Assembly (NCBI GenBank): GCA_903906305.1
Contig: CAIVJR010000007.1
Location: forward strand, 1 to 45,808
Source of the DNA: an uncultured bacterium
GTDB lineage: Bacteria; Patescibacteriota; Dojkabacteria; SC72
Length of the DNA: 45,808 bases
Reading direction: 5' to 3'
Every line of letters starts with the position of its first letter. Within the stretch, counting starts at the first letter, position 1. Below the pieces are notes generated by a model. That model worked only from the letters and a program-made list of their open reading frames with translations. It ran no database searches and was not told where the DNA came from. This document shows positions 7,020 through 25,642 of the stretch, piece by piece. The position numbers and the translations under genes were made by a program.

Positions 7020-9125
7020 ATGGTTTTAAACGAAATAAAACACGAATTTGAGATAGAGGGAAAGAAATGTACCTTTGAAACAGGTAAACTTGCTCTAAGA
7101 TCAGAATCAGCCATATTGGCAAGAATGGGAGATACAGTAATAACAGTAAATGTTAATACTGCAACACCAAAACAGGAATCAGATTTTTTTCCACTTTCAG
7201 TTGAATACATAGAGAAATTCTATGCTTCAGGAAAGATAAATGGATCTAGATTTGTTAAGAGAGAAAGATTCCCAAGTGATGATGCTGTTCTCAAAGCAAG
7301 AATGATAGATAGAGCAGTAAGACCTCGATTCCCTAAAGACTACAGAAATGATTTGAACTTGATTGTGACAGTAATGTCATATGATAGTGCATGTGATCCT
7401 GTACTTTTGGCAATCAATGCTGCGTCCGTTGCATTAATGTATTCTTCCGCTCCTTTCTCAGGCCCTATCGCAGGTGTCAGAATGGGAATGGTTGAAGGAA
7501 AAGCTGCAAGTATATCTAAATCAATGGATTTAACAACTCCTGAAGAAAAGATGAACTATGTTGTAGCAGGTGATGGTAAAACATTCACAATGATTGATGC
7601 AGGATGCTATGAATCTACAAATGAAGAGATAATTTCAGCAATGAAAGAATCTTTGAATTTAATGCAACCATGGATAGCTGCACAGAATGATTTCCTCAAG
7701 AAATTGGAAATGAAGGACAAAGCATATACATCATATGCAACTCCAGAGGAAGCAATCGATGGTGTTAAGGAATTCTTAACAGAAGCAAGAATCAAAGAAA
7801 ATCTTCAAAAAGCTAATGACAAGATTCATGAAGCAACAAAAGAAGAAATATTTACACAATTTGATGGTAAATTCTCTAAAGCAGTTTTAGCGGAGGCATA
7901 TGATTACCTTCAAAAGAAAGCTGCAAGGAAGATTGTACTTGAAGAAAATACAAGAGTAGATGGTAGAGCTATGGATGAAATCCGAGAGCTTTACACAGAA
8001 GTCGATCTCTTACCAAGAGTACATGGATCTGCACTCTTCACAAGAGGAGTAACTCAGGTTTTAACAATTACTACATTAGGTAGTATGAGAGATGCAAGAC
8101 TAGTAGATGATATGGAAGGTGAAAGAGAACAGAGATATATGCATTTCTATAATGATCTTCCATTTGTATATGGAATCTGTGACAGAATCAAATTCTCTCC
8201 AAGTAGAAGAGCAATTGGTCACGGAATGTTAGCTGAAAAAGCTTTAGTTCCTGTATTACCTACAGAAAAAGAATTCCCATACACAATGTTGGTAATGGGT
8301 GAAGTACAAGGTGAAAATGGATCAAGCTCAATGGCTTCAGTATGTGGATCTAGTATGTCATTAATGGCAGCAGGTGTTCCAATTAGAAAACCAGTTGCAG
8401 GTATAGCATGTGGATTAGTTGTAGCTGATGACGGTAGCTTCAAAGTATTAACTGATATGCAGGGTGTTGAAGATTTCTATGGTGACATGGACTTCAAGAT
8501 TGCTGGTACAGCTGATGGCGTAACTGCAGTACAGATGGATACTAAGACTCAAGGACTCTCTATGGAAATTGTTGAACAAACATTCAAACAGTCTACAGAA
8601 GCAAGAGCAAAGATTCTTGAAGCAATGAGTAAATCAATTGCCCAACCAAGAACCACTATGTCTGAATTCGCACCAAGAGTAGCTCAAGAGAAAGTAGCTA
8701 CAGACAAGATTGGTGAAATAATCGGGCCAGGAGGAAAGAACATTAGAGAACTTTCCGAGAGAACCGGTGCAGAAATCGAAATTGAAGAGGATGGAACAGT
8801 TAATATCTATTCCACATCTCAAGAATCTCTTGATGAAGCTGTTAAAGCAATCAGAAGATATGATTTCAAACCAGAAATAGGTACGATTTACGAAGGTAAA
8901 GCTGCATCTATAATGCCATATGGCGCATTTGTAGATTTGGCACCAGGTATCTCAGGTCTAGTACATGTATCTGAACTATCTGATGACTTTGTTAAAGATG
9001 TCCGTGACTTCATTAATGAAGGAGACATTGTTAAAGTCAAAGTCGTTGGTATAGATAACATGGGTAAGATCAAGTTGAGTATGAAAGGTTTAGATAAGAA
9101 CGAAGAAGTAACAGCAGTAGCTTAG
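7020..9125 (+). CDS. pnp: Polyribonucleotide nucleotidyltransferase (PNPase)
   Basis: 701 residues. This phosphorolytic 3'-5' exoribonuclease is a core RNA-decay enzyme. Two RNase PH domains (about 10-215 and 310-535) flank the helical linker. The second begins near 325 (RVDGRAMDEIRELYTEVDLL) and carries MAGEVQ-like and SMASVCGSSM motifs of the active face. A KH domain (IGEIIGPGGKNIRELSERTG, about 563-582) and an S1 domain (about 625-690) complete the usual architecture at normal length. The stop overlaps the stop region of the convergent methyltransferase gene by four bases, with no terminator between them. Confidence 0.97.
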   Translation: MVLNEIKHEFEIEGKKCTFETGKLALRSESAILARMGDTVITVNVNTATPKQESDFFPLSVEYIEKFYASGKINGSRFVKRERFPSDDAVLKARMIDRAVRPRFPKDYRNDLNLIVTVMSYDSACDPVLLAINAASVALMYSSAPFSGPIAGVRMGMVEGKAASISKSMDLTTPEEKMNYVVAGDGKTFTMIDAGCYESTNEEIISAMKESLNLMQPWIAAQNDFLKKLEMKDKAYTSYATPEEAIDGVKEFLTEARIKENLQKANDKIHEATKEEIFTQFDGKFSKAVLAEAYDYLQKKAARKIVLEENTRVDGRAMDEIRELYTEVDLLPRVHGSALFTRGVTQVLTITTLGSMRDARLVDDMEGEREQRYMHFYNDLPFVYGICDRIKFSPSRRAIGHGMLAEKALVPVLPTEKEFPYTMLVMGEVQGENGSSSMASVCGSSMSLMAAGVPIRKPVAGIACGLVVADDGSFKVLTDMQGVEDFYGDMDFKIAGTADGVTAVQMDTKTQGLSMEIVEQTFKQSTEARAKILEAMSKSIAQPRTTMSEFAPRVAQEKVATDKIGEIIGPGGKNIRELSERTGAEIEIEEDGTVNIYSTSQESLDEAVKAIRRYDFKPEIGTIYEGKAASIMPYGAFVDLAPGISGLVHVSELSDDFVKDVRDFINEGDIVKVKVVGIDNMGKIKLSMKGLDKNEEVTAVA

Positions 9126-10948: not shown

Positions 10949-13795
10949 ATGGGTATTAAAACACAAAAAGTATTAAGACTGATATCAAAAATAATATTGA
11001 TATTGGTAGGTGTAGGATTAATTGGTATTGCAGGATACTATGTTTACAAATCCATAGCGTTTAAACCCCAAAATGTTGTAGTTACAAATATAACGGATGG
11101 ATCTGCTACAGTGACTTGGACGACAGCTTCCCCTATGAAAGGTATTGTGTATGTTAAGAAAGACAAAGCATTACTTCCTGGACCTCTTGGAATTGTAGGA
11201 TCTAGTATGGCGTATGATGATAGGGATGTGAGTGATGCTCAAAAGGCTTGTGTTGATGCATTTAACAAGAAGGCTTCTGAAACTAAAGATTCTACATTTA
11301 GTGTAAGTGGTAGTAACTTTGATTGTGAGAATGCTAAGGTTTCTAAGATAGGATCTTACTACTCCCACAGTGTGACGATGACTAATTTAGATGAAAATTC
11401 TACATACAATTTTGTAGTTGGAGATGGTATATGGAGTTTTAAAGAGAGTTTTTCAATAGTTAAAACATTTACTGTACTAGATACTGTTGGAGAACCTATG
11501 CCTGTATTTGGAAGAATAACTGGTGATGATGGTACATATTCTAGAGATGCAATAGTATATATTACTTTTAATGATGGTAGTGAGGGTAAGGATAGTATTG
11601 TTTACAGTAGTGCTGTTAACGATGATGGTGGATGGTATGTGGATGCTTCTAGTGTTAGAGATGTGCAAGGGAATGTATTACCACTTGAAGTCACAAATGA
11701 TACCTTTAGAATAAGGGGAATATATTCTAATTATGGGAAGAGCGATGAGCAAAAGTTTATATTTGGATTTTTTGAAGTTACAACTTTTGATATCTTAGTA
11801 AAGAAAACACAGCCAGTAAGTAGCTCGATATTGGATAGGTTAGTTATGGGAGCTTATGCAAGCTGTGGAAAAAATACTTCTAACCAAACAGTCGCAGGCG
11901 TGGCTCCTGGGGGGTATATTTGCACTGACGACGAGGGAGGGTGGAAGAAAGCTACAGCAGCAGAATTGGCAGCGGAGGCATCTACAATTGGTGCTGGAAA
12001 TGTACTAAAATTAGCAGCAGCCGAAAATGGGGGAGTTGTACCCCAATCCGTCTTAAATACATTAGGAGTGTCTACAAATGAAGCAAAGTATATAACAAGC
12101 CAACAATCATCAGTGGCATATTGTAATGGAACGGAATATTGTTCGAATGGCAATTGCTCTGAAACTGAGGGAAAGTGTGGATATAAAGCCTCGAACCCAG
12201 CCCCAGGTTCGTCACCGTCACCATCTTGTTCCCCAGCTAGTTGTACGCCGACTAGCACTGCATCTTCAGTGATTTGTGTTGATGGAGTAGTTAAATCATT
12301 TCCGAATAGTACATGTGTGAGTACAACGAGTACCAGTGGCACAACATCTCCAACTCCTACATATGTATGTACAGAAGGCTCATGTAATTCTTCTAACCAG
12401 TATTGTTCGAATAATTCTTGGAAATTTATAAATGAAAAATGTGGATATTACACAGGTGCTAGTACCAGCGCAGTGTCACAGGAGAAATGCAGCATTGTCG
12501 GAAATTATGATGCAGAAGGCGGATTGCTAACATGCTCGATGTCATGTAACAATGGCAAATCATTTACGATGGGATTAAGCTCATGTAAAGCCATAGTATC
12601 TGAAGTAGTTCTTCCTCCTAATATTGCAGCAAGCGGTACACACCAGGAAATACCACACGACATAGTTGTGTCCCAGATTAAGATCTTAGAACTGAGTATT
12701 CCAAGAATAAAGAAATTGGCAGAAAATACAGATTCGATTAAAGATTTGTTAAAGGATGAAGTAGAAAAAATGGAAGCACAGAATCTTCCCAACTCAGGTC
12801 CTAATTCCACCCAATTTAATGGATATTGTGAAATAGCAGGAGGAACTTCTAATGCTCTTGCCTATCCATTTAAGTGTGATTTTTCTGGAACACAGAATAA
12901 AAATCCTTTTGTAGTTTCAAAAGTCTATGCAGCTGAAACAGCTACTGTAAATTCGTACGCACTGTATATGCCTGAGTATGGAATGTATAGCTTTGAATTG
13001 GGAGACTATACCATGTCTTCAAACGTTTCTGACGGTAAAACAATGTATCTCTTCTATGTAGAAGCAAACGATGTTGAAGGCTTCCAAATGCCAGCAGATC
13101 CAGATAATCCAACATCTGAGGAAGACATAGTTCTAAGCTCAAGTGCCTCAGAGATAACCTACAAACAAGAATCCACAGCTCAACAATATGTAATTAAAAA
13201 AGGAATAAACATCATATCCTTTGACTTTGTACCTGTATCAACAGACACAGGAGCATACACAGCAAAAGATGTCATATCCCAAGCTTTGGATAATGGTGTA
13301 GAAGTCCAATACATCTCAACCTTCGAGGGAGGAAGATGGAATAGTGGATATTCATGCTCAAGCGATACATGTACAGGAAATAATTTCACCATAGTTCCAG
13401 GGAAAGGATATTTAGTATATGCAACTCAGGATGGAACAGTAACAATACCCGGATACAACTTAACCTCCTCAGTACCAGTAGCATTCTCAGCAGGATGGAA
13501 CCTCATAGGAGTACACGGATATACCACAGCATACACAGCAAGATCATTCATAGATTCGATAAACAAAGTAACGGGGTTAACTGCAAACAATGTATCATGG
13601 TGGCCTACATCAAAGAGCAAGTATGAAGGAGTAGAGGTAGACAATGGAACACAATATGGATTAGATTTCTCAATAAGTCCAAATAATGGATATTTTGTAA
13701 GAATATCTAAATTTGCACCAACAGATACCAAGTGTAAATCCTTGATCTGGAATGCAGGTGGAAGTCTAAATGGAACTTGTGGAAATACAAAATAA
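10949..13795 (+). CDS. Large secreted/anchored surface protein with FN3-like domain
   Basis: 948 residues. One N-terminal hydrophobic segment (about 10-34) serves as signal anchor; the rest should be outside the membrane. A fibronectin-III-like domain of the purple-acid-phosphatase N-terminal type begins at about 39 (VVVTNITDGSATVTWTT). It carries a long cysteine-containing insertion and is followed by a carboxypeptidase-regulatory-like beta domain (about 182-240). A Cys/Ser/Thr/Pro-rich stretch (about 390-510) resembles disulfide-rich surface repeats. The last 220 residues contain two copies of a G(I/W)N-(I/L)-I motif. Codon composition changes abruptly near base 12,900. It heads the envelope block. 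Adhesion or apparatus surface component is the likely role; no enzyme motif is seen. Confidence 0.8.
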   Translation: MGIKTQKVLRLISKIILILVGVGLIGIAGYYVYKSIAFKPQNVVVTNITDGSATVTWTTASPMKGIVYVKKDKALLPGPLGIVGSSMAYDDRDVSDAQKACVDAFNKKASETKDSTFSVSGSNFDCENAKVSKIGSYYSHSVTMTNLDENSTYNFVVGDGIWSFKESFSIVKTFTVLDTVGEPMPVFGRITGDDGTYSRDAIVYITFNDGSEGKDSIVYSSAVNDDGGWYVDASSVRDVQGNVLPLEVTNDTFRIRGIYSNYGKSDEQKFIFGFFEVTTFDILVKKTQPVSSSILDRLVMGAYASCGKNTSNQTVAGVAPGGYICTDDEGGWKKATAAELAAEASTIGAGNVLKLAAAENGGVVPQSVLNTLGVSTNEAKYITSQQSSVAYCNGTEYCSNGNCSETEGKCGYKASNPAPGSSPSPSCSPASCTPTSTASSVICVDGVVKSFPNSTCVSTTSTSGTTSPTPTYVCTEGSCNSSNQYCSNNSWKFINEKCGYYTGASTSAVSQEKCSIVGNYDAEGGLLTCSMSCNNGKSFTMGLSSCKAIVSEVVLPPNIAASGTHQEIPHDIVVSQIKILELSIPRIKKLAENTDSIKDLLKDEVEKMEAQNLPNSGPNSTQFNGYCEIAGGTSNALAYPFKCDFSGTQNKNPFVVSKVYAAETATVNSYALYMPEYGMYSFELGDYTMSSNVSDGKTMYLFYVEANDVEGFQMPADPDNPTSEEDIVLSSSASEITYKQESTAQQYVIKKGINIISFDFVPVSTDTGAYTAKDVISQALDNGVEVQYISTFEGGRWNSGYSCSSDTCTGNNFTIVPGKGYLVYATQDGTVTIPGYNLTSSVPVAFSAGWNLIGVHGYTTAYTARSFIDSINKVTGLTANNVSWWPTSKSKYEGVEVDNGTQYGLDFSISPNNGYFVRISKFAPTDTKCKSLIWNAGGSLNGTCGNTK

Positions 13796-13819
13796 CTAAA
13801 TTAAATATATTTAAATAAC

Positions 13820-14152
13820 ATGGATACAATACCACCAGTATTTTGGATGATAATTGTTAGTGTCTTGACCATAATGGTATGTCTCATACTCTACTATGTA
13901 GCTATGCTCATAAAAGAGACTAGAACGACTGTAGCAGACGCAAGAGATACAATGAAACAGGCAACTAAGATGCTTCAACAATTAGAACTCATAGTCAATG
14001 ATGTTCAAAGCAGTGTTTCCACAATCAGAGGAACAGTTGAAGAAGTAAACCAATCAATATTAGCTCCAATTAGGAAAATAGCTGGAGGAATATTAACAGC
14101 ATCTGCATTCCTTGGAGGTCTTAAGAAAAAAGAATCAAGAACTGAAGAATAA
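13820..14152 (+). CDS. Small membrane protein, DUF948-like
   Basis: 110 residues. One transmembrane helix (about 7-30) is followed by an amphipathic, coiled-coil-like stretch (about 33-80) with evenly spaced hydrophobic residues. A second mildly hydrophobic segment (AGGILTASAFLGGL) and a charged tail close it. This layout matches DUF948-type membrane proteins, whose function is unknown. It lies between the two FN3-type surface proteins, 24 and 39 bases from its neighbours, and so is probably part of the same transcript and apparatus. Confidence 0.65.
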   Translation: MDTIPPVFWMIIVSVLTIMVCLILYYVAMLIKETRTTVADARDTMKQATKMLQQLELIVNDVQSSVSTIRGTVEEVNQSILAPIRKIAGGILTASAFLGGLKKKESRTEE

Positions 14153-14191
14153 CGTTGTATTTCTCCGTATTACTAGCTATTATAGTTATTA

Positions 14192-15814
14192 ATGAAGATT
14201 GCTCGTGTACCATCAAAAAAACGTAATATATTAACGTTAATAATACTAATTGTCGGATTACCACTTTTAGTTTATGCCTCATACCAAGCCGTGCAATTGG
14301 TGACTAAAGCAAGCGCGAATACTGAACCAAAGAATGTATTGTTAACCAATCTAACAACATCTTCCATAACTGTTACCTGGACCACAGATTCTCAAACAAG
14401 AGGAACCGTAGCTATTGTCAAAAACAACACGGAAGGAACACCAGTTATAGATACTAGAGGAAATACAAAAAGATATACCCATTTTGTAGAATTAACAGGC
14501 TTAGAACCTAATACAACTTACAGTTTTGTGATCACTTCGGATACAACAAAATACACAGCAACAACAGGTAACAGTAAATTTACATTTAAAACTGCAGCTA
14601 TAACTGCGGAGACACCAACACCCAACCCAATTCACGGATCAGTGGAGGATGTCTCTGGAGACGATGTTCTTGTTTTTGCAGTTCTAAAAGACAAATCGGT
14701 ATATCCTGTATCTGCAACCATGCCAAGTGGGGGAAATTGGATTATGGATCTATCAGCATTTAGAAAAATTTCGGACAATTCATTAGTAATATCAAATAGC
14801 GATACCAATATTGTTCTTGTAGCAATATCTGCAACTGGGAGTGGAGATATGTTCTCAGGCTCTTACTCAGAACTTTTTGATAGTAATGGGAAATTAAAGA
14901 GTACTCAGGCTTTCAATATTGGAGAAAATACAGAATTGTATTCATCTTTCCCGAATACGGCTATGTTACTTGCAGAAAATACTGTAGTTGAAGAAGACAA
15001 TGAAGATCCAGTTGTTGTTCCAGAAGAACCAGAAGAAGAAATTCCAACAGAGGAAGAACCTACAACAGGAGGACGTACCTTTAGATTAGTTAAAGATTTG
15101 TCATGGGAGGATATGGTTGTAGCTGGAGGACTAACATGGCCATACGGGGCAAGTACGGTACAAATAACGAATTTAACCGACACGGGATTTACAGTAATAT
15201 GGGCGTCACAGAAGAGCGAACAAGGATATATTAACTATGGTACAAGTTCGAGTGATCTTTCAAGCCAAGGAAATGATGAAAGAGATGGAGTAACTAACAG
15301 GGGCACATATTACATACACAGTGTATCTCTAACGAGGTTGCAACCTGAAACAAAATATTACTTTGAAGTAGTGTCTGGAACAAACAAATTTGATAACAGT
15401 GGAAAAAAATATACGGTATCAACATTTGCTACTTTAAGTACACCTCCTTCATATGTATCCATAACGGGAACGGTTAGTAATATGCCTGAGAGTGAAGAGG
15501 GGATTGTGGTTGGATATATTAAGGATATGGATGGTACAGGTACTGCTAATCAAGCTGGTCCGATCTCTGCAGTCTTAGATGAGAATGGGAAATGGATACT
15601 TTCCATAGCTGATAGTAGATCTTCTGATGGGAGTGTGTATTTTGAATATACTTCTGCAGATAGTATGTATTTTGATATTCTTAGTACAATACCATCGTTT
15701 ACACCTGTAGCTGTGTCTATGAATGGTATTACAGGGAAGGATATTGGGCTATCTATTAGTACAAGAGAAACTACAACTACGATACCTAAATTATCTAACT
15801 ATGGAGTTATTTAA
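14192..15814 (+). CDS. Membrane-anchored surface protein with duplicated FN3 module
   Basis: 540 residues. An N-terminal signal anchor (about 12-33) precedes an FN3-like domain (about 45-135, with VLLTNLTTSSITVTWTTDS) and a carboxypeptidase-regulatory-like domain (about 148-235). A very acidic Pro/Glu linker (about 265-295) leads to a second FN3-like domain (about 318-415, VQITNLTDTGFTVIWAS) and another regulatory-like domain (about 425-500). The FN3 plus regulatory pair is therefore duplicated and also resembles the N-terminal part of the 948-residue protein upstream. Purple-acid-phosphatase-type FN3 domains alone have no catalytic residues. Likely a structural or adhesive surface protein. 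Confidence 0.8.
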   Translation: MKIARVPSKKRNILTLIILIVGLPLLVYASYQAVQLVTKASANTEPKNVLLTNLTTSSITVTWTTDSQTRGTVAIVKNNTEGTPVIDTRGNTKRYTHFVELTGLEPNTTYSFVITSDTTKYTATTGNSKFTFKTAAITAETPTPNPIHGSVEDVSGDDVLVFAVLKDKSVYPVSATMPSGGNWIMDLSAFRKISDNSLVISNSDTNIVLVAISATGSGDMFSGSYSELFDSNGKLKSTQAFNIGENTELYSSFPNTAMLLAENTVVEEDNEDPVVVPEEPEEEIPTEEEPTTGGRTFRLVKDLSWEDMVVAGGLTWPYGASTVQITNLTDTGFTVIWASQKSEQGYINYGTSSSDLSSQGNDERDGVTNRGTYYIHSVSLTRLQPETKYYFEVVSGTNKFDNSGKKYTVSTFATLSTPPSYVSITGTVSNMPESEEGIVVGYIKDMDGTGTANQAGPISAVLDENGKWILSIADSRSSDGSVYFEYTSADSMYFDILSTIPSFTPVAVSMNGITGKDIGLSISTRETTTTIPKLSNYGVI

Positions 15815-15841
15815 TAGTTTACTAGAAACCATTATAATATC

Positions 15842-15850
15842 TGATATAAT
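15842..15850 (+). promoter_or_regulatory. Extended -10 promoter inside the envelope block
   Basis: TGATATAAT ends 11 bases before ATG 15862, predicting a five-base leader. A second TATAAT lies just upstream (15833-15838). It suggests that the genes from 15862 onward can be transcribed separately from the FN3 genes. Confidence 0.6.
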
Positions 15851-15861
15851 CAGGGACTTGC

Positions 15862-17169
15862 ATGTATACAGAACATAACCAAACAAAGAAAAACAAGAAA
15901 GCGTTATTACTACTCTTAGTACTTGGGGTATTTGGGTTTGTGGCGTTTAAATATACCAAGGTTAAGGATATTGTGGCGAAGGATAACAATATTCAAACTT
16001 CAAATTGTTGTGGAACAACAGTTGTAGATGAAAGTAATGAATACACATCTAAGTTTTTCCTGGTCGACGATAGTGGGGAAATATCTGATATAACTCCTGT
16101 AAAATCTCCATCTCAAAATACTGTACTAGGAGCATCCACAGGTGGATGTACAACAAATAGTCTATACTCGGGAAGTCTGGCATGTGTAAAGAGCAAGGAT
16201 AATCAATTTAGTATAAATGGAAAAACATTCTTGGCATCTGAGGTTAATATAACGATGGATTGGATTACTGCACCATTGATCCTCTTTTCAGGATCGAGTA
16301 AGTATGATATAGCGAATTCGAATAGGAATAACCCAGGAGTATATAAACCTGCTGGGGAACAATTTAGTAAAAAACAATCAGATGTTGTTACAACCCCAGG
16401 CGAAGGACACGATGAGGCCGAGGCAAGGTTGGCTAGTGCTCCAATAAAGAAAAGCTTTGGTACGGAGTATTCTATTACCACGTCCGATACGCCCAATTCA
16501 GAGCCACAGGGTGATATTGTAGTCAATAAATATGTCGAAAGTGATTGTGTAGAATGTGGTAACATTTCAAATCCTAATCCTAAGAAAACAAATGATTCCT
16601 CCGCTGTTTTTTCGGCAATCAATTTCAAAACTCCTGGATATATGGAAACAGATGATAATGTCATTGAAATTGAGGGACAATGTCCAGCATATCGTGATTT
16701 TAGTATGCTATCTATAATTAATCCGACCGTTTGTTCAAATCCGTGGAATATTCTGACAGGAACTTTAGCTTCCCTTTTTCCATCTCATGACTGGAACCAA
16801 TGTGATCCTGAAGAAGATACTGGATGTGTAAGCTCACAAAATTTAGTAGTAAAGATGAATCCAATTTTTAAAGAAACAAATTCATATATGGATGCTAGAA
16901 ATTCTTCTGCCATGGATCCTAAGACTGCAGAATTATATGTCCCTATATATGTTCTAACACCATGTACAGCCAGAGTAACAGGGAAATCTAGTTCCTTTGA
17001 CGTTAAAGTTAAATGCGTATGGGATATGTCATATCTATTTTATGAAAATGCTGCATCTGCCTATGATAGTAATCCTGGATCAGATGATACAATGAGTGAT
17101 GAACAGTTTATGGAATACTTAAAAACCGAAACAGTGAAAAGAGGATCAGAAACACTGATTTCAATGTAA
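15862..17169 (+). CDS. Membrane-anchored extracytoplasmic protein, unknown
   Basis: 435 residues, not recognised. A basic N-terminus and one hydrophobic helix (about 15-32) anchor it, and the rest is predicted to be outside. It contains many cysteines, including CC near residue 49, paired cysteines in ESDCVECGN near 230, and four more towards the C-terminus, which suggests disulfides. It directly precedes the VirB6-like gene by 26 bases and has a promoter of its own. By position it may be an accessory component of the same trans-envelope apparatus. No domain could be named by eye. Confidence 0.65.
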   Translation: MYTEHNQTKKNKKALLLLLVLGVFGFVAFKYTKVKDIVAKDNNIQTSNCCGTTVVDESNEYTSKFFLVDDSGEISDITPVKSPSQNTVLGASTGGCTTNSLYSGSLACVKSKDNQFSINGKTFLASEVNITMDWITAPLILFSGSSKYDIANSNRNNPGVYKPAGEQFSKKQSDVVTTPGEGHDEAEARLASAPIKKSFGTEYSITTSDTPNSEPQGDIVVNKYVESDCVECGNISNPNPKKTNDSSAVFSAINFKTPGYMETDDNVIEIEGQCPAYRDFSMLSIINPTVCSNPWNILTGTLASLFPSHDWNQCDPEEDTGCVSSQNLVVKMNPIFKETNSYMDARNSSAMDPKTAELYVPIYVLTPCTARVTGKSSSFDVKVKCVWDMSYLFYENAASAYDSNPGSDDTMSDEQFMEYLKTETVKRGSETLISM

Positions 17170-17195
17170 TAATTTAAATTAATTAAATATTTAAT

Positions 17196-18683
17196 ATGAG
17201 TTACGTATCAAAAACCTACGAATTTCTAGGAAAAGTTGAAAGTCTTTTTAATAGGAAGATGTTTAAAACTGCATTCATAGCAATTTCTAGCATGTTCCTA
17301 TTCTTTGGAGTTATGAATGTATATGCACAAGAAGGTGAAAAGATTTCTCCAAACTGGGAAGGGACGAAAGCATTTTACAACGAAGCAAGTGGAACAACAG
17401 CAGATGAAGATAACATGACAAGCCATTCGGGACAATTAGGACTAAATACTGCATGGGTCGTATTGGCTACATTGGCCCCAGAATATACTGAAGGTGGTAC
17501 GGTGGTTATGAACAATCCCGATATTCCTTCTGATTTGAAAATGGGACTATTAGGAATCTCAGACCAAGCATTAGCATTTGTGTATCGAAATCAGGGAAAT
17601 GTTAACGTCGTGGCACATTTGCAAGAAGAATGGGTTCCAGGATATAAAGAAGCAAATACAGGATTGTATGCAGGCAATGGAGATAATACAACCGGATATG
17701 AAAGCTTAATGCAATCAGGTATCTCACCATTGTGGAATCAAATGAGAAATATAGCGTATGTGTTTTTTATCGTGATAATGATTGTAATAGGGTTCATGAT
17801 TATGTTCAGAAGTAAGCTAGGGGGTCAGACAATGGTATCAATAGGGAACACAATTCCAAGTGTTATTGTCAGTTTAATATTAGTAACATTTAGTTTTGCA
17901 ATAGCAGGAGTGATTATAGATTTTGGGGGAGTAATAGTGAATTTACTTTACAATATATTTGATGAAAAAAGTGTTTCAATACAAAATATAGGGCAACTAT
18001 TTTCTGTACTTTTTAAAGGAATGGATACAGAATTAGTAAATGTCTTCAATGGAAGAGTTGCTGATGTATTAACGGGTTTCTCTTCATCTATCTTTGAAGG
18101 ATTTGTTAATCTCCTCTGGGAGATAGATAAATCTTTGTATATGGGTATTATAGGAATCCTTGCACTTCTAATCGGTATGGGTGTTGTTTTTGTTGGAGCT
18201 ATCAAACTCATCATAGTGTTGTACAAAGCCTACTTTGAACTTTTGTTAAATGTAGTAGTAGGACCAATAACTATAATGCTTGGAACATTACCAGGAAAAG
18301 AGAATATGAAGATGAACTGGCTTACAAGTATAGTCAGAAATGTTTTAGTATTTCCAATTGTGTATTTCATAATCAATATTCCAGTATATCTAATGCAATC
18401 CAGTGGTGTAGCATTACAGTTACCTGAGAAGTTAACTGGTGCGAATCTTGAGAGTGCGGTAGGAGATACTGCAACTATATCTTCTGAAGCAGGATATTGG
18501 GGACTTGTTATAGCATTTGTTCTTAGAGTATTTGTTCTCTACTATGCAGCTCAAGCTCCTAAATTTGCTGAAGCTATTGTGCCTGTATTAGAAACAAATA
18601 GAGCAGCTGCAGATGCTATGGCTAGTGCAAAGATGGGTATGGCAAAGATTCCTTTGATTGGTGGATTGTTCGCAGGGAAATAG
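17196..18683 (+). CDS. VirB6/TrbL-like polytopic membrane protein
   Basis: 495 residues. An N-terminal hydrophobic segment ending in an AQE signal-peptidase-like site (about 23-46) precedes an extracytoplasmic domain (about 47-180). Roughly six membrane spans follow, near 185-204, 219-252, 316-343, 346-365, 381-401 and 438-460. The order (N-terminal secreted region, then a hydrophobic core with a long loop) resembles VirB6/TrbL, the inner-membrane channel component of type IV secretion systems. The next gene encodes a membrane-anchored peptidoglycan hydrolase, a usual T4SS companion. No VirB4 or VirD4 ATPase is in the window. A holin or unrelated transporter is the alternative; confidence in the T4SS link is moderate. 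Confidence 0.65.
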   Translation: MSYVSKTYEFLGKVESLFNRKMFKTAFIAISSMFLFFGVMNVYAQEGEKISPNWEGTKAFYNEASGTTADEDNMTSHSGQLGLNTAWVVLATLAPEYTEGGTVVMNNPDIPSDLKMGLLGISDQALAFVYRNQGNVNVVAHLQEEWVPGYKEANTGLYAGNGDNTTGYESLMQSGISPLWNQMRNIAYVFFIVIMIVIGFMIMFRSKLGGQTMVSIGNTIPSVIVSLILVTFSFAIAGVIIDFGGVIVNLLYNIFDEKSVSIQNIGQLFSVLFKGMDTELVNVFNGRVADVLTGFSSSIFEGFVNLLWEIDKSLYMGIIGILALLIGMGVVFVGAIKLIIVLYKAYFELLLNVVVGPITIMLGTLPGKENMKMNWLTSIVRNVLVFPIVYFIINIPVYLMQSSGVALQLPEKLTGANLESAVGDTATISSEAGYWGLVIAFVLRVFVLYYAAQAPKFAEAIVPVLETNRAAADAMASAKMGMAKIPLIGGLFAGK

Positions 18684-18712
18684 CATAATTTGAATATAGA
18701 CTTAAATAGCTG

Positions 18713-21430
18713 ATGGGAAAGGGTAAGAAGCCAAAAGGTGAAGAAGAGGTATTAGGTCAAATATTTGACTTCATATTTAAGGAGGCTAAAAAGAAGCCGG
18801 GTAAAAGAAAACCAATTAAACCTACAGGAATATCTACATCAGGAGAGGTTGTTGATGGGCTGGCTGCAGCACTAGAACAACCTGGATTGTTTGTTAGCGA
18901 CCAAATTCTTTCAAGTCTGAATGATTCTTTAACTATAGAGTTTGGAAGAATCAAGGCGAATGAGTCGGGTTCTCAAAATGCTAAATTCACAACTACAAGT
19001 CTGATAAGCTTCCTATCTGATCCAAATAAGTTTTTTGATAAACCAAAAGAAGGAGCCAAAATGGGCATAAGAGATGCAATGAAAGCTGGATTTATGGGTA
19101 GAATTCAGCAAGAATTAATATCTAATGCATGGGCTAAAAAATATAATCTTGATCTAGATGCTAGAAAGGCAATTAGAGGCCATTATGAAGCTGAGAAGAT
19201 AGGTCGAGAAGCAGAAGCGCAGAGAGCTTTCGCAATGTCAGCAGGAGCTGCTATTGGTGGAGATGATAATTCCAGAAAAAATTATGTTATAAGCAGAAGT
19301 GCAAACCTTGTAGGAAAGGAAATGTTTGGAAGGGATGGATGGGAGTCCATGAGTGAGGCAAGGAAGATTGCTTTACAACAAGCAATCATTGGAGGAAATA
19401 TCGCTGTGAAAAAGTTTATGACTAGTACATATGGTGACCCAAGTCTCCGGATTGTGACTCCAAGCGCAAGACTTGGGGCAATTGCTTTATCTAAATATGA
19501 TAATTTGGTAGCAAGAGGTGGATTGAAAATTTCTCCGACAGGTTTCAATAATGGTGATAAGGGAATTAATCTTCTTGATTTAAATACTTATAACAAGTTA
19601 GAGATTGGAAATATTAAGGGGAGAATCCGTGATATGGAAATATATATCGCAAGGAATCCAGGACTAAGCATAAATGAGAAACAGAAAATTCAAATGGGGA
19701 TTGATAAACTGCAACAAGCAAGTGTAATTGTAACTGGAAATCATTTAGACCTGGATAAAGTTCAAGAATCGAAAATAGAATTGAGAAGGATGGTTGAGGA
19801 CTACAAGTCAAAACTTGAAGCTGCGAAGCGAGCTGGGGATCAAAATGGAGTAAGGTACTACAAAGATCAAATAAAAAATTTAAAAGAGGGAGATAGACAA
19901 CTTAATGCTTTAAATTTTTGGGGGAAAATAGGAAAAAGGGAAGGTCAAATTGATTCACTAAAAGATGTTCTTGGAGAAGGACTTGCCCCAAATGCACTAT
20001 TAAGTGTATTAAATGGATCTTTGTATGATAAAAACAGAAATAGCTTCTATCTTCCAATAAAAGAAGAAGAAATTAGTTTTGGATCTCATACATGGGATTT
20101 AAAAGATGAAACTGGAACAAAAAAACCAGAAACTCACGCTGAAGAAATTACATTCTTTTGTGCTGCTGATGGAGCTAACAAATTATCCTCTGCATATAAA
20201 GCTTATTTAACAAATATTTACTATCTTACTCCCAGATCTATTTTAAGAACGCTGTTTGTTAATGGAGAAGGTTTTGTATACCTTGCTTATCTTAAAAGAC
20301 AACGCTTTATTACGGAATACGGTGTACAAAATTTAGATTTCGTTAAGCTCTTAAAAAATGATAGTACTTTGCTTACAGAGTTATCAAGGAAGGGATTAAC
20401 GAAGGGTCACATTGCTAGTTTAAAATTTAGTGGAAGATTAGCACAAATCTTTTCTTTTGGACAAAGAAAAAGAGATATGATCAAAAACTGGATGGATGAT
20501 CATTTCTTCAAGCAAATGAGGCAAAAAATATATAACAGTTTGATAAAGAAAATCACAGATGCAGAAGCATTAGCATTACTGAAGACTTGGTTAGCAAAGG
20601 GTGGCTTTGAGATTGTAGCAAAGGCTATCGTTATAGGTATCCTTGATGCATTAGGAATTGCCGCTACTGGTGGATTTGGATCATTCATCGTCCCAATTTT
20701 AAGTGTTATTGTCGTCGATATATTATATGGTCTTGTTAAAATTGTAGTACAAGTAGTATTACTTGTAGCTCTGGGAATGATAGGCTTTATATTCTTTGTT
20801 TCTTCTGGTGCTAAAAAAGACTTTGACGCTCAAACCTATGCTTACACTAATGTTGTCCCTGGTGAAGTCGTTACTAATCCAAACTTTAAAGGAACAAGCC
20901 CAATTATCCAACCAGATGATCCAAGCAATATTGGAAACTTTGTAGGTGGGACTCTTCCAGATGGAGAAAAATGTCTCTTGGGCTCCGGAAGTTTCCATTG
21001 TACTCAGGGACCATATGGTAGTTATTCACACCAAAGGGTAGCAGCAGTAGATATAACAGGGGTGAACTATTTCTATGCTCCAGCTTTCTGTGGGAATAAT
21101 AACTGTAAAGTAACATATTCAGGATCTACATCCTGTACTAATGGTTATGCAGGAGGAATGATGATATTTACTGCCTCATATGGTGGAAATACATACGAAT
21201 TTAAGCTCATACATGTACAACCTGGTGCTGGAAGTGGAGCAACACTCTCTTCTGGGCAACGTGTTGCTAGAGTGATGACAGTTCAAGAAACTACAAATGC
21301 TTGTTCTTCCGGAATGCATCTCCATTTACAAACGAAGATGAATGGAAGTGTAGTGAATCCAAGAGATGTATTAAACAACAATACTTCAAGCGGAGGATTC
21401 TCATGTAGCGTAAGTGTATGTGATCCATAA
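18713..21430 (+). CDS. Large membrane protein with C-terminal M23 (LytM-type) peptidase
   Basis: 905 residues. The first 620 residues are hydrophilic, basic and partly coiled coil, with no signal peptide, so they probably lie in the cytoplasm. Hydrophobic helices follow at about 626-699. The C-terminal domain outside is an M23 zinc metallopeptidase: H-x6-D in SHQRVAAVDI (near 771), an LIHVQ stretch (near 830) and the HxH of GMHLHLQ (near 868). All expected zinc ligands are visible. M23 enzymes cut peptidoglycan peptide bridges. Fused to a membrane and cytoplasmic part and placed after a VirB6-like gene, it may open the wall locally for the apparatus. The cytoplasmic domain is not recognised. 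Confidence 0.78.
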   Translation: MGKGKKPKGEEEVLGQIFDFIFKEAKKKPGKRKPIKPTGISTSGEVVDGLAAALEQPGLFVSDQILSSLNDSLTIEFGRIKANESGSQNAKFTTTSLISFLSDPNKFFDKPKEGAKMGIRDAMKAGFMGRIQQELISNAWAKKYNLDLDARKAIRGHYEAEKIGREAEAQRAFAMSAGAAIGGDDNSRKNYVISRSANLVGKEMFGRDGWESMSEARKIALQQAIIGGNIAVKKFMTSTYGDPSLRIVTPSARLGAIALSKYDNLVARGGLKISPTGFNNGDKGINLLDLNTYNKLEIGNIKGRIRDMEIYIARNPGLSINEKQKIQMGIDKLQQASVIVTGNHLDLDKVQESKIELRRMVEDYKSKLEAAKRAGDQNGVRYYKDQIKNLKEGDRQLNALNFWGKIGKREGQIDSLKDVLGEGLAPNALLSVLNGSLYDKNRNSFYLPIKEEEISFGSHTWDLKDETGTKKPETHAEEITFFCAADGANKLSSAYKAYLTNIYYLTPRSILRTLFVNGEGFVYLAYLKRQRFITEYGVQNLDFVKLLKNDSTLLTELSRKGLTKGHIASLKFSGRLAQIFSFGQRKRDMIKNWMDDHFFKQMRQKIYNSLIKKITDAEALALLKTWLAKGGFEIVAKAIVIGILDALGIAATGGFGSFIVPILSVIVVDILYGLVKIVVQVVLLVALGMIGFIFFVSSGAKKDFDAQTYAYTNVVPGEVVTNPNFKGTSPIIQPDDPSNIGNFVGGTLPDGEKCLLGSGSFHCTQGPYGSYSHQRVAAVDITGVNYFYAPAFCGNNNCKVTYSGSTSCTNGYAGGMMIFTASYGGNTYEFKLIHVQPGAGSGATLSSGQRVARVMTVQETTNACSSGMHLHLQTKMNGSVVNPRDVLNNNTSSGGFSCSVSVCDP

Positions 21431-21447
21431 TTTGAAAAATATTGATA

Positions 21448-22425
21448 ATGGATAAAAAGAAAAAATTAATTCTGTTAGTAATTATAGGAATATTTGTAAT
21501 AGCCTTAATCATAGCCTTGTATCTTGTATTTAAATCTCAAACCAATCCATATCCTAAGGAAGCTATCAACCAGGAATCGCTTAATTCAACTACGGAAACG
21601 ATTGCTCTTGGAGATACCAATATTGAATCCTCAGATGGTTACCTATACACAGTTTCAAAGATGGTTATGGTTGAAAAAGTTGGAGAATTTGCATACAGCC
21701 TTAGCCCAAAACTAATACAAACAATCAATGAAAAAGGATCATACTATGAATGGCGTAATGGAGAGGATTATGTAATCTACGAACTTGAACAAAACACCGT
21801 TATCTTTGCTTTGAAACAAGGGATAACTTGGAATGAGGCAAGTATCAATGGATACTCCTTCACGCAATTTACTAAGAATTACTTTGGGGAAAGCTGGACA
21901 TATTCAACCTCTGAAAGCGAAAAACAACCAAGTGGAGAAACAATATACTATGCAAAAAGACAGATTGAGGGAATGAATGTAGAAATGGTTTTAAATAACC
22001 AATCTACCGACTATCTTGCGACAAAGAACGGTAAAATAGTATACGGCAAAATCCTACTATCAGATCTTGCAAAAGTAGAAGGTAAGCTCCCATTAATCAG
22101 CTCTGAAGACTTGGATAAATATCTCAATCTTGAAAGCTATCCAAAGGAAATATATCCAGAGTATGGACCAATACAAAATACAATACTCTCAGCAGTTGAT
22201 TACAAAAGCGAAGATTTTGATACAATAGTGAAAACTATCACAAATTGCAAAAGTTCATCTGCATCAATTATATATCTGTACAAATCTCTCACCCAAGGCA
22301 ATCTAACCCCTGTATACAAACTAGATTTACAGTGTGAGATAACATATAAAGATACAAAATACACAATTCCTGCAATCGGCTACGTTAATGCAATTGACCC
22401 AAAATATGTATCTACGGCAGAGTAA
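21448..22425 (+). CDS. Membrane-anchored extracytoplasmic protein, unknown
   Basis: 325 residues. A lysine-rich start and one helix (about 6-28) form a signal anchor, and the rest is outside. The body is rich in Tyr, Ser, Thr and Glu, with mixed alpha/beta character and two late cysteines (about 269 and 301). No family was recognised. ATG 21448 is chosen over an in-frame TTG six bases upstream. It is the last gene of the block, 17 bases after the M23 gene. A promoter-like element inside its final codons serves the next gene. Confidence 0.6.
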   Translation: MDKKKKLILLVIIGIFVIALIIALYLVFKSQTNPYPKEAINQESLNSTTETIALGDTNIESSDGYLYTVSKMVMVEKVGEFAYSLSPKLIQTINEKGSYYEWRNGEDYVIYELEQNTVIFALKQGITWNEASINGYSFTQFTKNYFGESWTYSTSESEKQPSGETIYYAKRQIEGMNVEMVLNNQSTDYLATKNGKIVYGKILLSDLAKVEGKLPLISSEDLDKYLNLESYPKEIYPEYGPIQNTILSAVDYKSEDFDTIVKTITNCKSSSASIIYLYKSLTQGNLTPVYKLDLQCEITYKDTKYTIPAIGYVNAIDPKYVSTAE

Positions 22426-22444: not shown

Positions 22445-23617
22445 ATGAAATCACTCTTCAAACTCATCTTTACACTCCTCCTTTTGCTAATTCCAGCAAA
22501 GATTTTTGCATATACAATCAACACTGTAACAGATCAGAAATTTGACGCAACCATTGCAGACCAGACACAAACGAAATATGTAACTCCAACAACAATATAT
22601 ATATCCCAAATAACTACAACCTCACCCGAACTGCAGAAAAATCCATCACTTTGGGTTAAAACATTGTATTACTATTCCATAACCAGATTACATTTTGCTG
22701 ATATTCCATACAACTATCTTGTTGATACTAACGGTGCAATATATGTAGGACGAAGCGGAGGAATAGGCGCTAACCCTGAGCTCAGAGATGCTCAAGGGAG
22801 CATCCTAATTGGATATCTTTCCAATGACTCAATATTAACGAACAGAGCTTCAACATCACTCCGTAACCTTGTAGATTCAACTGCTTCAACATGGGGAATT
22901 TCAAGTCTTTCAATAGTAAAACTTACAATTTCTCAACAAGAAGGCCAATTAAGTAAATTAGTACCAGAAGAACTAAGCGGAGAATTCAAACAATCAGTAT
23001 TGGATACATTCTCAGGATGGACAGGATATACCTCTGAAAAATTACAATACAAAGCCAAGGTAGAAGAAGTTACATACAACAAAGAAGTAACCATAGGTTC
23101 AAAATTACATGTAACTGTTAAAGTAAAAAATTTAAATGATTTTACATGGTTAACAGACAAAAACCCAATATATATATCTGCGAAAGATGTAAAACAGAGT
23201 AAATTTGCCATAAATGGGGTATGGGATAGTTTTACTAAACCAACACATATCTCCGACAATGCAATTCTTCCAGGAGAAACAGCTACATTTGAATTTGACC
23301 TCTCAGCTCAAATAGCACCAGGCGAAACATTTGAAAAATTCGTAGTACAGAAATTTGATGCACAACCATTTGCAGACACGGAATTTGAAGTTAAGTTTAA
23401 CATTGTAAAAGGAGATAAAACATTAGTACAAGTCGCTTCATCAGAATATGGATTTGCGAATATTAGAGAATGCCAATGGTATAGCTGTAAGATAATAGAT
23501 ACAGTAGATAATGGAGTGGTATACATACTCCTTGCCGAGGAAAATGGCTGGATGAAGATTCAGTACACTGAAAATACAGTAGGATGGGTATTCTCTAGAT
23601 ACATGAAAAAGATTTAA
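22445..23617 (+). CDS. Secreted PGRP/amidase-2-like protein with C-terminal SH3 domain, zinc ligands apparently lost
   Basis: 390 residues. Signal peptide at about 1-22 (SPase-like AxA near the end). The region 45-130 keeps the scaffold of PGRP/amidase-2 domains, with DTNGAIYVGRSGG (94-106) and GSILIGYL (118-125). However, the HHT zinc motif position reads ISQIT (53-57), and the usual GYHF histidine is Asn (PYNYLV, 88-93). It would therefore bind rather than cut peptidoglycan. A beta-rich middle (about 200-310) and a bacterial SH3-like end (about 325-390, ending WVFSRYMKK) follow. A divergent amidase using other ligands is the alternative. Confidence 0.7.
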   Translation: MKSLFKLIFTLLLLLIPAKIFAYTINTVTDQKFDATIADQTQTKYVTPTTIYISQITTTSPELQKNPSLWVKTLYYYSITRLHFADIPYNYLVDTNGAIYVGRSGGIGANPELRDAQGSILIGYLSNDSILTNRASTSLRNLVDSTASTWGISSLSIVKLTISQQEGQLSKLVPEELSGEFKQSVLDTFSGWTGYTSEKLQYKAKVEEVTYNKEVTIGSKLHVTVKVKNLNDFTWLTDKNPIYISAKDVKQSKFAINGVWDSFTKPTHISDNAILPGETATFEFDLSAQIAPGETFEKFVVQKFDAQPFADTEFEVKFNIVKGDKTLVQVASSEYGFANIRECQWYSCKIIDTVDNGVVYILLAEENGWMKIQYTENTVGWVFSRYMKKI

Positions 23618-23632: not shown

Positions 23633-25642
23633 ATGAAACTCGAAAAAATTCTTGGAGGTTTAAATCCAGAACAAAAAAAAGCGGTTCAATGTACAGATGG
23701 CCCCCTCCTTGTTTTTGCAGGGGCTGGGTCTGGAAAAACACGTGTAATCACAAGTAGAATTGCATACCTCATAAGTGAGAAAAATGTTAAACCAGAGAAT
23801 ATTCTTGCAGTAACATTTACAAAGAAAGCGGCAGGAGAAATGTTAGAAAGAATAAAAAGCATTTTAAAGGATATTAATGCAGATATTGAAGACCTCCCAT
23901 CTGTGGGAACTTTCCACTCAATAGGGGCACTATTCTTAAGACATAATGCGAAGGCAGTTGGTCTTACAAATAATTTCTCCATCTATGACTCAGATGATAG
24001 TGAAAACCTCATAAAAGAGCTAATGATAGAAAGACAGATAGATATAAAACAGATAAAGCCACAGTCAGTATCATATTTCATAAGTGCAGCAAAAAATGAG
24101 ATGGTCTCGCCAGAAACATTTGGCTCACACTATGGTGGATATATTGAAGATATTGTTGCCGATATATATCCAGCATATCAAAAACAACTTAAAATACAAA
24201 ATTCTGTAGACTTCGGAGACCTTCTGTATCTAACAGTAAAAATGTTGGAAGAAAATGAAGAAGTTCGAAAATACTACCAAGATAGATATCAATATCTTCT
24301 AATTGATGAGTACCAAGATACCAATCAAGCACAATACAAGTTTGCAAGATTACTTTCTGAAAAACATCAGAATATCTGTGTCGTTGGAGATGACGATCAG
24401 GGAATCTACGCATGGAGGGGTGCAGATATAAAAAACATTCAATCATTTGAAGAAGATTTTGCCAAAGTAACGGTAATTAAGCTCGAACAAAACTATCGTT
24501 CAACCAAGAATGTAATCTCAGCTGCAGTCGCAGTTATCCAACAAAACAACAAAAGAGTAGGTAAAAAGCTTTGGACAGACAATGAGGACGGAGAGAATAT
24601 CTCGGTATACCAAGCTAGAGATCAAGAGGACGAATCAGAATATGTAGTTGGAAAGATAGACCATATGCGTGATATGCATATCCCGCTCTCAAACGTTGCA
24701 ATATTGTACAGAACGAACTATCAATCCAGAGCAATCGAAGAAGCTCTACTTAAAACAGGAGTTCCATACAAATTAGTAGGAGGTTTTAGATTCTATGAAC
24801 GTAAGGAGATTAAAGATGTAATCAGCTATCTTAGATTTTTGTATAACATAAAAGATGAACTTAGCTTAGGAAGAATAATAAATGTGCCAACGAGAAAAAT
24901 TGGTCCTAAAACAGTAGCTTCCTTGCATGAGTTAGCCCGACAAGCAGATTGTGCAATAGGTGAGCTCTTGGTAGGAGCATATGCTTTAAGCCATCCAGAA
25001 AGCCAGCAAATCATTGATCTTGGAGGTGGACTATTAAACCGAGTCAATGAAGTATCTTCAGAACTCGGAAAGTTTGCATCTTTGATATCAACATTCGGAT
25101 ATCTGTATGTAGAAGCGAGAAAGAAAAATCTACTGGATATAATAGATATCATCCTTGAAAAGACCAACTATATTCAATGGTTCGATGATGGTACAGATCA
25201 GGCTCAGATGAAAAAGGAAAATGTAACTGAGTTGAAAAATGTAGCATATCAATATACCAAGAAATACCCGAATAAGAGCTTAGAGATGTTCTTAAATGAA
25301 ATCAACTTAATTGAACAAGAACAAGACAAAAATCAAGATGGAAGCGGATCATATGTTAATCTCATGACACTTCACTCATCGAAAGGTTTGGAATTCGACT
25401 ATGTATTTGTAATAGGAATGGAAGAAGGATTGCTTCCACATTCCAGAGCATTTACAGATGAAAATGAGCTAGAAGAAGAAAGAAGACTTTGCTATGTTGG
25501 GATAACAAGAGCGAAGCGTAAGCTAACCTTAACCTTTGCAGAAACAAGACTTACAAGAGAAGGATTTACATCTCAAATACCATCAAGATTCTTAGGAGAA
25601 ATACCTCAAGAGATTTGTGAATACTACAGCTGGAATGCTTAA
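23633..25642 (+). CDS. uvrD: UvrD/PcrA-type superfamily 1 DNA helicase
   Basis: 669 residues. A 3'-5' DNA helicase acting in nucleotide excision repair and fork maintenance. All SF1A motifs are present in order: AGAGSGKTRVI (motif I, about 29-39), LIDEYQDTNQAQ (II, about 223-234), GDDDQGIYAWRGAD (III, about 251-264), LEQNYRST (IV), LMTLHSSKGLEFDYVF (V, about 577-592) and EERRLCYVGITRAKR (VI, about 616-630). It is slightly shorter than the usual 720 residues, lacking most of the C-terminal tail that contacts RNA polymerase. It ends two bases from the convergent Rpf-like gene, with no terminator between. Confidence 0.95.
   Translation: MKLEKILGGLNPEQKKAVQCTDGPLLVFAGAGSGKTRVITSRIAYLISEKNVKPENILAVTFTKKAAGEMLERIKSILKDINADIEDLPSVGTFHSIGALFLRHNAKAVGLTNNFSIYDSDDSENLIKELMIERQIDIKQIKPQSVSYFISAAKNEMVSPETFGSHYGGYIEDIVADIYPAYQKQLKIQNSVDFGDLLYLTVKMLEENEEVRKYYQDRYQYLLIDEYQDTNQAQYKFARLLSEKHQNICVVGDDDQGIYAWRGADIKNIQSFEEDFAKVTVIKLEQNYRSTKNVISAAVAVIQQNNKRVGKKLWTDNEDGENISVYQARDQEDESEYVVGKIDHMRDMHIPLSNVAILYRTNYQSRAIEEALLKTGVPYKLVGGFRFYERKEIKDVISYLRFLYNIKDELSLGRIINVPTRKIGPKTVASLHELARQADCAIGELLVGAYALSHPESQQIIDLGGGLLNRVNEVSSELGKFASLISTFGYLYVEARKKNLLDIIDIILEKTNYIQWFDDGTDQAQMKKENVTELKNVAYQYTKKYPNKSLEMFLNEINLIEQEQDKNQDGSGSYVNLMTLHSSKGLEFDYVFVIGMEEGLLPHSRAFTDENELEEERRLCYVGITRAKRKLTLTFAETRLTREGFTSQIPSRFLGEIPQEICEYYSWNA

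What the first reader, a model, noticed from the sequence alone, without database searches (positions are those of the whole stretch)
10949..22425. Possible new trans-envelope apparatus: FN3 proteins, VirB6-like channel and membrane M23 hydrolase
Seven consecutive genes on one strand all encode membrane or exported proteins: two FN3-type surface proteins sharing a duplicated module, a DUF948-like protein, a cysteine-rich anchored protein, a VirB6/TrbL-like polytopic protein, a 905-residue M23 protein and another anchored protein. A wall-cutting enzyme beside a VirB6-like channel resembles a type IV secretion core, but no ATPase, coupling protein or pilin is present. It may be a reduced system for DNA uptake, attachment to a host cell, or surface-layer display.
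Basis: inference. Interest (0 to 1): 0.65.

Follow-up and report, generated by a model that had tools for sequence, protein, structure and literature searches.

The report
Displaced half of a secretion machine
This gene cluster from an ultrasmall bacterium (Dojkabacteria) encodes the membrane channel, wall-cutting and surface parts of a known type IV secretion machine, the kind that a relative needs to live on its host cell, moved away from the motor genes and given extra surface proteins.

Summary
Seven of them keep their order across a whole Dojkabacteria (WS6) family, between rsmE/rsmB and pcrA. The 495-aa protein is a VirB6. Its best solved-structure matches are R388 TrwI/VirB6 chains, and outside Dojkabacteria its relatives lie within 15 kb of virB4, on the same strand, in 43 of 47 cases. 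The same genome carries PrgI(VirB3)-TrsD-VirB4 and a VirD4-family ATPase at other loci; VirB2-like pilins occur in 22 of 24 good relatives, and in this assembly their block appears to fall in a gap. In Microgenomatia one cluster runs pilins-VirB6-M23-anchored protein-PrgI-TrsD-VirB4, so the window operon is the displaced VirB6-M23-anchored-protein half of the known Patescibacteria type IV secretion system, plus extra FN3, Cys-rich and amidase-like/SH3 proteins. New points: the VirB6 that a 2025 survey found scarce in Microgenomatia; the split locus; an anchored component folded like YycI (not VirB8); the added surface module. Substrate and function remain inferred. Verdict: new variant of a known kind.

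The parts
10949..13795 (+). FN3A: 948-aa anchored surface protein, N-terminal TM, one FN3/Pur_ac_phosph_N module, Cys-rich linker (26 Cys), conserved C-terminal domain; optional member of the operon
   Evidence: absent in e.g. L024, L026, L028, L034, L074
13820..14152 (+). D948: 110-aa single-TM protein, probable coiled coil, DUF948-like (weak)
14192..15814 (+). FN3B: 540-aa anchored surface protein with two FN3/Pur_ac_phosph_N modules
15862..17169 (+). CYS: 435-aa Cys-rich anchored protein; in the phylum sample found confidently only in this Dojkabacteria family; no known fold
17196..18683 (+). VirB6-like polytopic membrane protein (495 aa), T4SS inner-membrane channel component
   Evidence: Pfam TrbL 6e-5; predicted fold matches R388 TrwI/VirB6 first; near VirB4 in other classes
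18713..21430 (+). VirB1-like protein: about 630-aa N-terminal region, TM segments, C-terminal extracellular M23 (LytM) domain with H773/D780/H834/HxH869-871
   Evidence: orthologue by profile and position next to PrgI in Microgenomatia
21442..22425 (+). ANCH: 327-aa single-TM anchored protein with YycI/YycH-like fold; conserved T4SS cluster member
   Evidence: model pLDDT 90.8; Foldseek 2o3o 5e-8; profile match to the protein next to PrgI in Microgenomatia 3e-11
22445..23617 (+). AMI: 390-aa exported protein, PGRP/type-2-amidase-like domain apparently without the zinc histidines, plus C-terminal SH3b; probable peptidoglycan binder

Best explanation
The operon encodes the envelope-spanning half of the chromosomal Patescibacteria (MPF_FATA-related) type IV secretion system, separated on the chromosome from the motor half. 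Shown by sequence, synteny and fold prediction: VirB6, a membrane-anchored M23 protein (VirB1-like) and a YycI-fold anchored protein form a conserved triad that in Microgenomatia sits in one cluster with VirB2-like pilins, PrgI/VirB3, TrsD and VirB4, while in Dojkabacteria the triad is 31-46 kb away (opposite strand) or on another contig and has gained FN3, Cys-rich and amidase-like/SH3 proteins. Inferred: VirB4/PrgI and VirB6 form the membrane translocon; the M23 domain opens the wall locally for the channel or pilus; the YycI-fold protein scaffolds or senses at the membrane-wall boundary in place of VirB8; the pseudo-amidase/SH3b protein holds the machine on peptidoglycan; the FN3 proteins are surface adhesins or spacers that help contact the host cell. 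As in Saccharibacteria, where a T4SS is essential for epibiotic growth, it most likely moves protein or another cargo between the cell and its host; the cargo is unknown.
For: VirB6: TrbL Pfam hit; top Foldseek hits of the model are TrwI/VirB6 chains 8rt9_F, 7o3v_G, 8rtd_L (prob 0.92-0.97, though E about 0.1). Guilt by position: in a phylum sample, of 47 same-contig VirB6-VirB4 pairs outside Dojkabacteria 43 are under 15 kb apart and all 47 are on the same strand. Profile-profile tests of 48 family pairs gave exactly the three expected matches: VirB6 (9e-51), M23 (2.7e-9), ANCH (3e-11), in the same gene order next to PrgI-TrsD-VirB4. VirB4 and VirB6 both in 24/24 relatives at least 90% complete. 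VirB4-PrgI-TrsD in the same genome at G000:C10, VirD4-family ATPase at C5. Pilin arrays in 22/24 relatives. T4SS essential for epibiotic growth in Southlakia (PMC10633639).
Against: No experiment links the two loci in Dojkabacteria; Foldseek E-values for VirB6 are weak (0.1-0.2) and the Pfam hit is under cut-off. The large N-terminal region of the M23 protein is not confidently matched in Microgenomatia (the profile match is through the M23 domain). No VirB8 found. Pilins are not in this assembly. Epibiosis of Dojkabacteria is not demonstrated here.
Confidence: 0.8

Rival explanations
1. A separate envelope/wall-remodelling or attachment complex that borrowed a VirB6-like protein and no longer works with VirB4 (for example a surface display or adhesion machine).
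For: The operon is 31-46 kb from, or on another contig than, virB4 in Dojkabacteria, on the opposite strand; five of its eight proteins have no counterpart in Microgenomatia T4SS clusters; ANCH has a cell-wall regulator (YycI) fold.
Against: No second VirB6 exists in the fully scanned genome, so VirB4 would lack its partner; VirB4 and VirB6 always co-occur in good genomes; the VirB6-M23-ANCH triad is part of the VirB4 cluster elsewhere.
Confidence: 0.12
2. A reduced DNA-uptake (competence-like) system.
For: T4SS-derived DNA uptake exists (Ced/Ted systems, cited in PMC12102498); a VirD4-family ATPase is present.
Against: No DNA-uptake protein (ComEC, DprA) lies in the operon; comEC is dispensable for epibiotic growth in Southlakia while the T4SS is essential (PMC12857230, PMC12102498); the system is not reduced.
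Confidence: 0.05
3. A remnant of a conjugative element (ICE) in decay.
For: Homology to MPF_FATA conjugation machinery (PMC12102498).
Against: Fixed chromosomal place between rsmE and pcrA across a whole family, intact reading frames, presence in 24/24 good genomes.
Confidence: 0.03

Closest known systems
Patescibacteria chromosomal T4SS (MPF_FATA-related clade; Quinonero-Coronel et al. 2025, PMC12102498; Southlakia SEML1_0006-0019, PMC10633639)
   Same: VirB4, PrgI/VirB3, TrsD, VirB6, pilin arrays; no VirB9/VirB10 layer reported; VirD4-like gene elsewhere
   Different: VirB6-M23-anchored protein moved 31-46 kb away from VirB4 with five extra surface/wall proteins; that survey looked within 20 CDS of virB4 and reported VirB6 as scarce in Microgenomatia and VirB8 as nearly absent
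pCF10 PrgK (VirB1 homologue of MPF_FATA systems; PMC12857230)
   Same: Large membrane protein with an extracellular LytM/M23 domain; the long N-terminal region ahead of the TM resembles its intracellular domain in layout
   Different: Only one hydrolase domain here (no muramidase or CHAP domain detected); about 630-aa N-terminal region; active-site residues lost in some relatives
YycI/YycH regulators of WalK (PDB 2o3o, 9a5d)
   Same: Single N-terminal TM and predicted extracytoplasmic fold
   Different: Encoded in a T4SS operon, no Pfam YycI match; a role in WalK control is not shown
R388 TrwI/VirB6 (PDB 8rt9, 8rtd, 7o3v)
   Same: Best structural match of the 495-aa protein
   Different: About 14% identity, extra N-terminal segment and its own conserved motif (GFMIMFR...GGQ...TFSFAI)

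Membership tests
Patescibacteria type IV secretion system | VirB4 ATPase in the genome | tested here: met
   G000:C10:25157-27580, P-loop_TraG 6.8e-29, CagE_TrbE_VirB 3.1e-5; not in the window
Patescibacteria type IV secretion system | VirB3/PrgI next to VirB4 | tested here: met
   PrgI 30.3 bits over cut-off 27
Patescibacteria type IV secretion system | VirB6 polytopic component | tested here: met
   window 17196-18683; Pfam just under cut-off, VirB6 chains are the best solved structures though with E about 0.1, close to VirB4 in other classes
Patescibacteria type IV secretion system | VirB1-like wall hydrolase | tested here: met
   M23 domain with conserved metal/catalytic residues in most family members; same gene position in Microgenomatia
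Patescibacteria type IV secretion system | VirB2-like pilins | tested here: inconclusive
   Arrays in 22/24 good relatives and both congeners; none in this assembly, where the whole neighbouring block, smpB included, is absent and the flanking gene lies at the edge of contig C6, so probably an assembly gap
Patescibacteria type IV secretion system | VirB8 (NTF2-like) component | tested here: not met
   The one candidate that was folded, ANCH, resembles YycI, not an NTF2 fold; VirB8 is also near-absent in the 2025 survey, so it does not define this clade
Patescibacteria type IV secretion system | VirD4-family ATPase in the genome | tested here: met
   TrwB_AAD_bind 36.6 bits, cut-off 20.5, at G000:C5:13362-15914; link to this T4SS unproven
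Conjugation system | Relaxase | not tested
   No relaxase search was run
VirB8 family | NTF2-like periplasmic fold (327-aa protein) | tested here: not met
   Foldseek hits only YycI/YycH and one uncharacterised protein (5coz) at E <= 0.001
YycI/YycH family | Single TM plus YycI-like extracytoplasmic fold | tested here: met
   2o3o E 5e-8, prob 1.0, TMt up to 0.48
YycI/YycH family | Linkage to or binding of the WalK kinase | not tested
   No walK/walR is in the operon; the genome was not searched for it
Catalytic type-2 amidase / PGRP | Zinc-binding His/Cys residues | tested here: inconclusive
   Fold region matches PGRPs (best 8e-4); no conserved His is seen where the first zinc ligand should be in alignment A6, by inspection

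The most novel reading that the evidence does not exclude
Patescibacteria T4SSs contain a previously unrecognised conserved core component with a YycI/WalK-regulator fold that takes the place of VirB8 and couples channel assembly to wall state, and Dojkabacteria carry a dedicated FN3/Cys-rich/pseudo-amidase surface module on this machine for binding and piercing a host cell.
Probability: 0.35. Interest if true: 0.7.

Novelty: new variant of a known kind. Interest (0 to 1): 0.5.

Why it matters
The T4SS is one of the few machines shown to be essential for a Patescibacterium living on its host. This work supplies VirB6 sequences in the class where a phylum-wide survey found VirB6 scarce, shows why a search within 20 genes of virB4 misses the Dojkabacteria components (the locus is split), adds two testable components (an M23 protein and a YycI-fold protein) to the machine, and names candidate surface proteins for host contact in Dojkabacteria. 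The family profiles can be used on other Patescibacteria.

Tried and rejected
VirB8 identity of the 327-aa protein: rejected by its fold. PDB sequence-profile searches with the Cys-rich, VirB6 and anchored proteins: no useful hits. NCBIfam: nothing above cut-off. Counterparts of FN3A, FN3B, D948, CYS and AMI in Microgenomatia T4SS clusters: none by profile-profile comparison. T4SS_pilin Pfam hits in the own genome: weak (0.0055, 0.044), inside other membrane proteins, rejected. A single-profile match between the whole M23 protein and its Microgenomatia counterpart was near decoy level, so only the M23-domain profile match is used. Search for YycI together with T4SS in papers: no relevant report; Dojkabacteria with T4SS: no paper. 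Viral structure library: nothing.
Full report
Observation. Searches confirm the seven ORFs and show an eighth (22445-23617) in the same tight array, followed 15 bp later by pcrA. One search shows N-terminal TM anchors for five of the seven, a polytopic 495-aa protein and a 905-aa protein with TM segments before a C-terminal M23 domain. FN3-type modules are in both surface proteins, two copies in the 540-aa one.

Source. The window is contig C7 of a 787-kb, 10-contig, 99% complete genome. Named relatives show that it belongs to Candidatus Dojkabacteria (WS6).

Conservation. The order [FN3A]-D948-FN3B-CYS-VirB6-M23-ANCH-AMI-pcrA, with rsmE/rsmB upstream on the other strand, recurs throughout the family. 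FN3A is missing in several genomes, and some have an extra gene before AMI; in one of these (L036) it is a UbiA-like gene. In two more distant loci (L083, L124) the core VirB6-M23-AMI-pcrA persists, but CYS was found confidently only in this family in a phylum sample of 193 genomes.

Identity of the 495-aa protein. Pfam TrbL/VirB6 hits at 6e-5, slightly under cut-off, and in only 2 of 15 family members. A model built on 53 homologues (mean pLDDT 80.6) finds R388 TrwI/VirB6 chains as the first six PDB hits, and among later hits a Dot/Icm protochannel chain. The E-values are weak (0.1 or more), the probabilities high (0.92-0.97) for the first three. The family profile also reaches long proteins across the phylum.

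Link to the motor. VirB4 with PrgI and a TrsD-like protein is at C10 of the same genome, and a VirD4-family ATPase at C5. VirB4 and VirB6 are each in 24 of 24 relatives at least 90% complete. Comparing the two phylum-wide searches (computed): outside Dojkabacteria 47 VirB6-VirB4 pairs lie on one contig, all on the same strand, 43 of them under 15 kb apart; in Dojkabacteria all pairs on one contig are on opposite strands, 31-46 kb apart (one paralogue at 57 kb). So the locus was split in this lineage.

Homology of the other parts. In Microgenomatia the VirB6 homologue sits in one cluster: pilin array - large protein - VirB6 - (opposite-strand gene) - M23 protein - about 320-360-aa anchored protein - PrgI - TrsD - VirB4. 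Not every fetched locus spans the whole row. Profile-profile tests of eight Dojkabacteria families against six Microgenomatia families gave exactly three significant pairs of 48: VirB6 (100%, 9e-51), M23 domain (96%, 2.7e-9), ANCH (97%, 3e-11, almost full length). The Microgenomatia M23 domain is independently above the Pfam cut-off (5.8e-12). FN3A, FN3B, D948, CYS and AMI have no counterpart there, so they look like a Dojkabacteria addition.

ANCH. The model (pLDDT 90.8) matches YycI (2o3o, 5e-8) and a WalK-YycH model (9a5d), not NTF2-like VirB8. The 2025 survey reports VirB8 as nearly absent in Patescibacteria (PMC12102498). I infer that this protein fills a similar place; its function is not shown.

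AMI and M23. AMI matches SH3b domains (4e-9) and PGRP/amidase folds (8e-4), and no conserved histidine is seen at the expected first zinc-ligand place, so it probably binds rather than cuts peptidoglycan. The M23 active-site residues are kept in most family members, including this one, and degraded or lost in several.

Pilins. A pilin profile finds arrays in 22 of 24 good relatives, both congeners included, but none in this genome. A scan of the entire assembly confirms this. The whole neighbouring block (smpB, a SpoIID-domain protein, pilins, a UvrD-like helicase, an AP endonuclease) is absent, and the homologue of the gene beyond it starts 1.1 kb from the end of contig C6. An assembly gap is the likely cause.

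Known and new. The system belongs to the published Patescibacteria T4SS (PMC12102498), which in Southlakia is essential for epibiotic growth (PMC10633639). That survey examined genes within 20 CDS of virB4 and called VirB6 scarce in Microgenomatia. New here: VirB6 relatives found in Microgenomatia and Dojkabacteria, the split locus, the YycI-fold component, and the Dojkabacteria surface module. I did not see the survey's supplementary tables, so some of these proteins may be listed there as unnamed families.

Mechanism. VirB4/PrgI/VirB6 as translocon, M23 opening the wall, ANCH as scaffold or sensor, AMI and FN3 proteins for wall anchoring and host contact, and pilins for attachment, is a reading from homology; cargo, direction and host are unknown.

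Noticed in passing
L032:6699-11145 (G013), L035:7626-15036 (G023), L094, L100, L102: A second VirB6 paralogue locus in some Dojkabacteria: a ~235-aa anchored protein, one or two VirB6 paralogues (584-899 aa) and a protein related to the N-terminal region of the M23 protein but without an M23 domain.
   Followed up: partly
L125, L126:9398-10043, L127:8258-9980, L128, L129: VirB2-like pilin arrays of Dojkabacteria, in the better-covered loci of about five genes between a SpoIID-domain protein gene and a UvrD-like helicase, in the same order in several genera.
   Followed up: yes
G000:C6:1-1137 (L140): Probable assembly gap: the block carrying smpB, pilins, a UvrD-like helicase and an AP endonuclease in relatives is missing from this assembly, which is nevertheless rated 99% complete.
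   Followed up: partly
window 25645-26568 (-): G5-domain protein (2.4e-8) on the opposite strand after pcrA; a gene of similar length lies at that place in many relatives.
   Followed up: no
window 41732-42208 (-): IS200-like (Y1) transposase gene inside the ribosomal protein operon region, between secY and adk.
   Followed up: no
window 7020-9125 and 23633-25642: Neighbours of the operon are housekeeping genes: a polynucleotide phosphorylase-like gene upstream and pcrA downstream, so the machine genes sit in a stable chromosomal region.
   Followed up: partly
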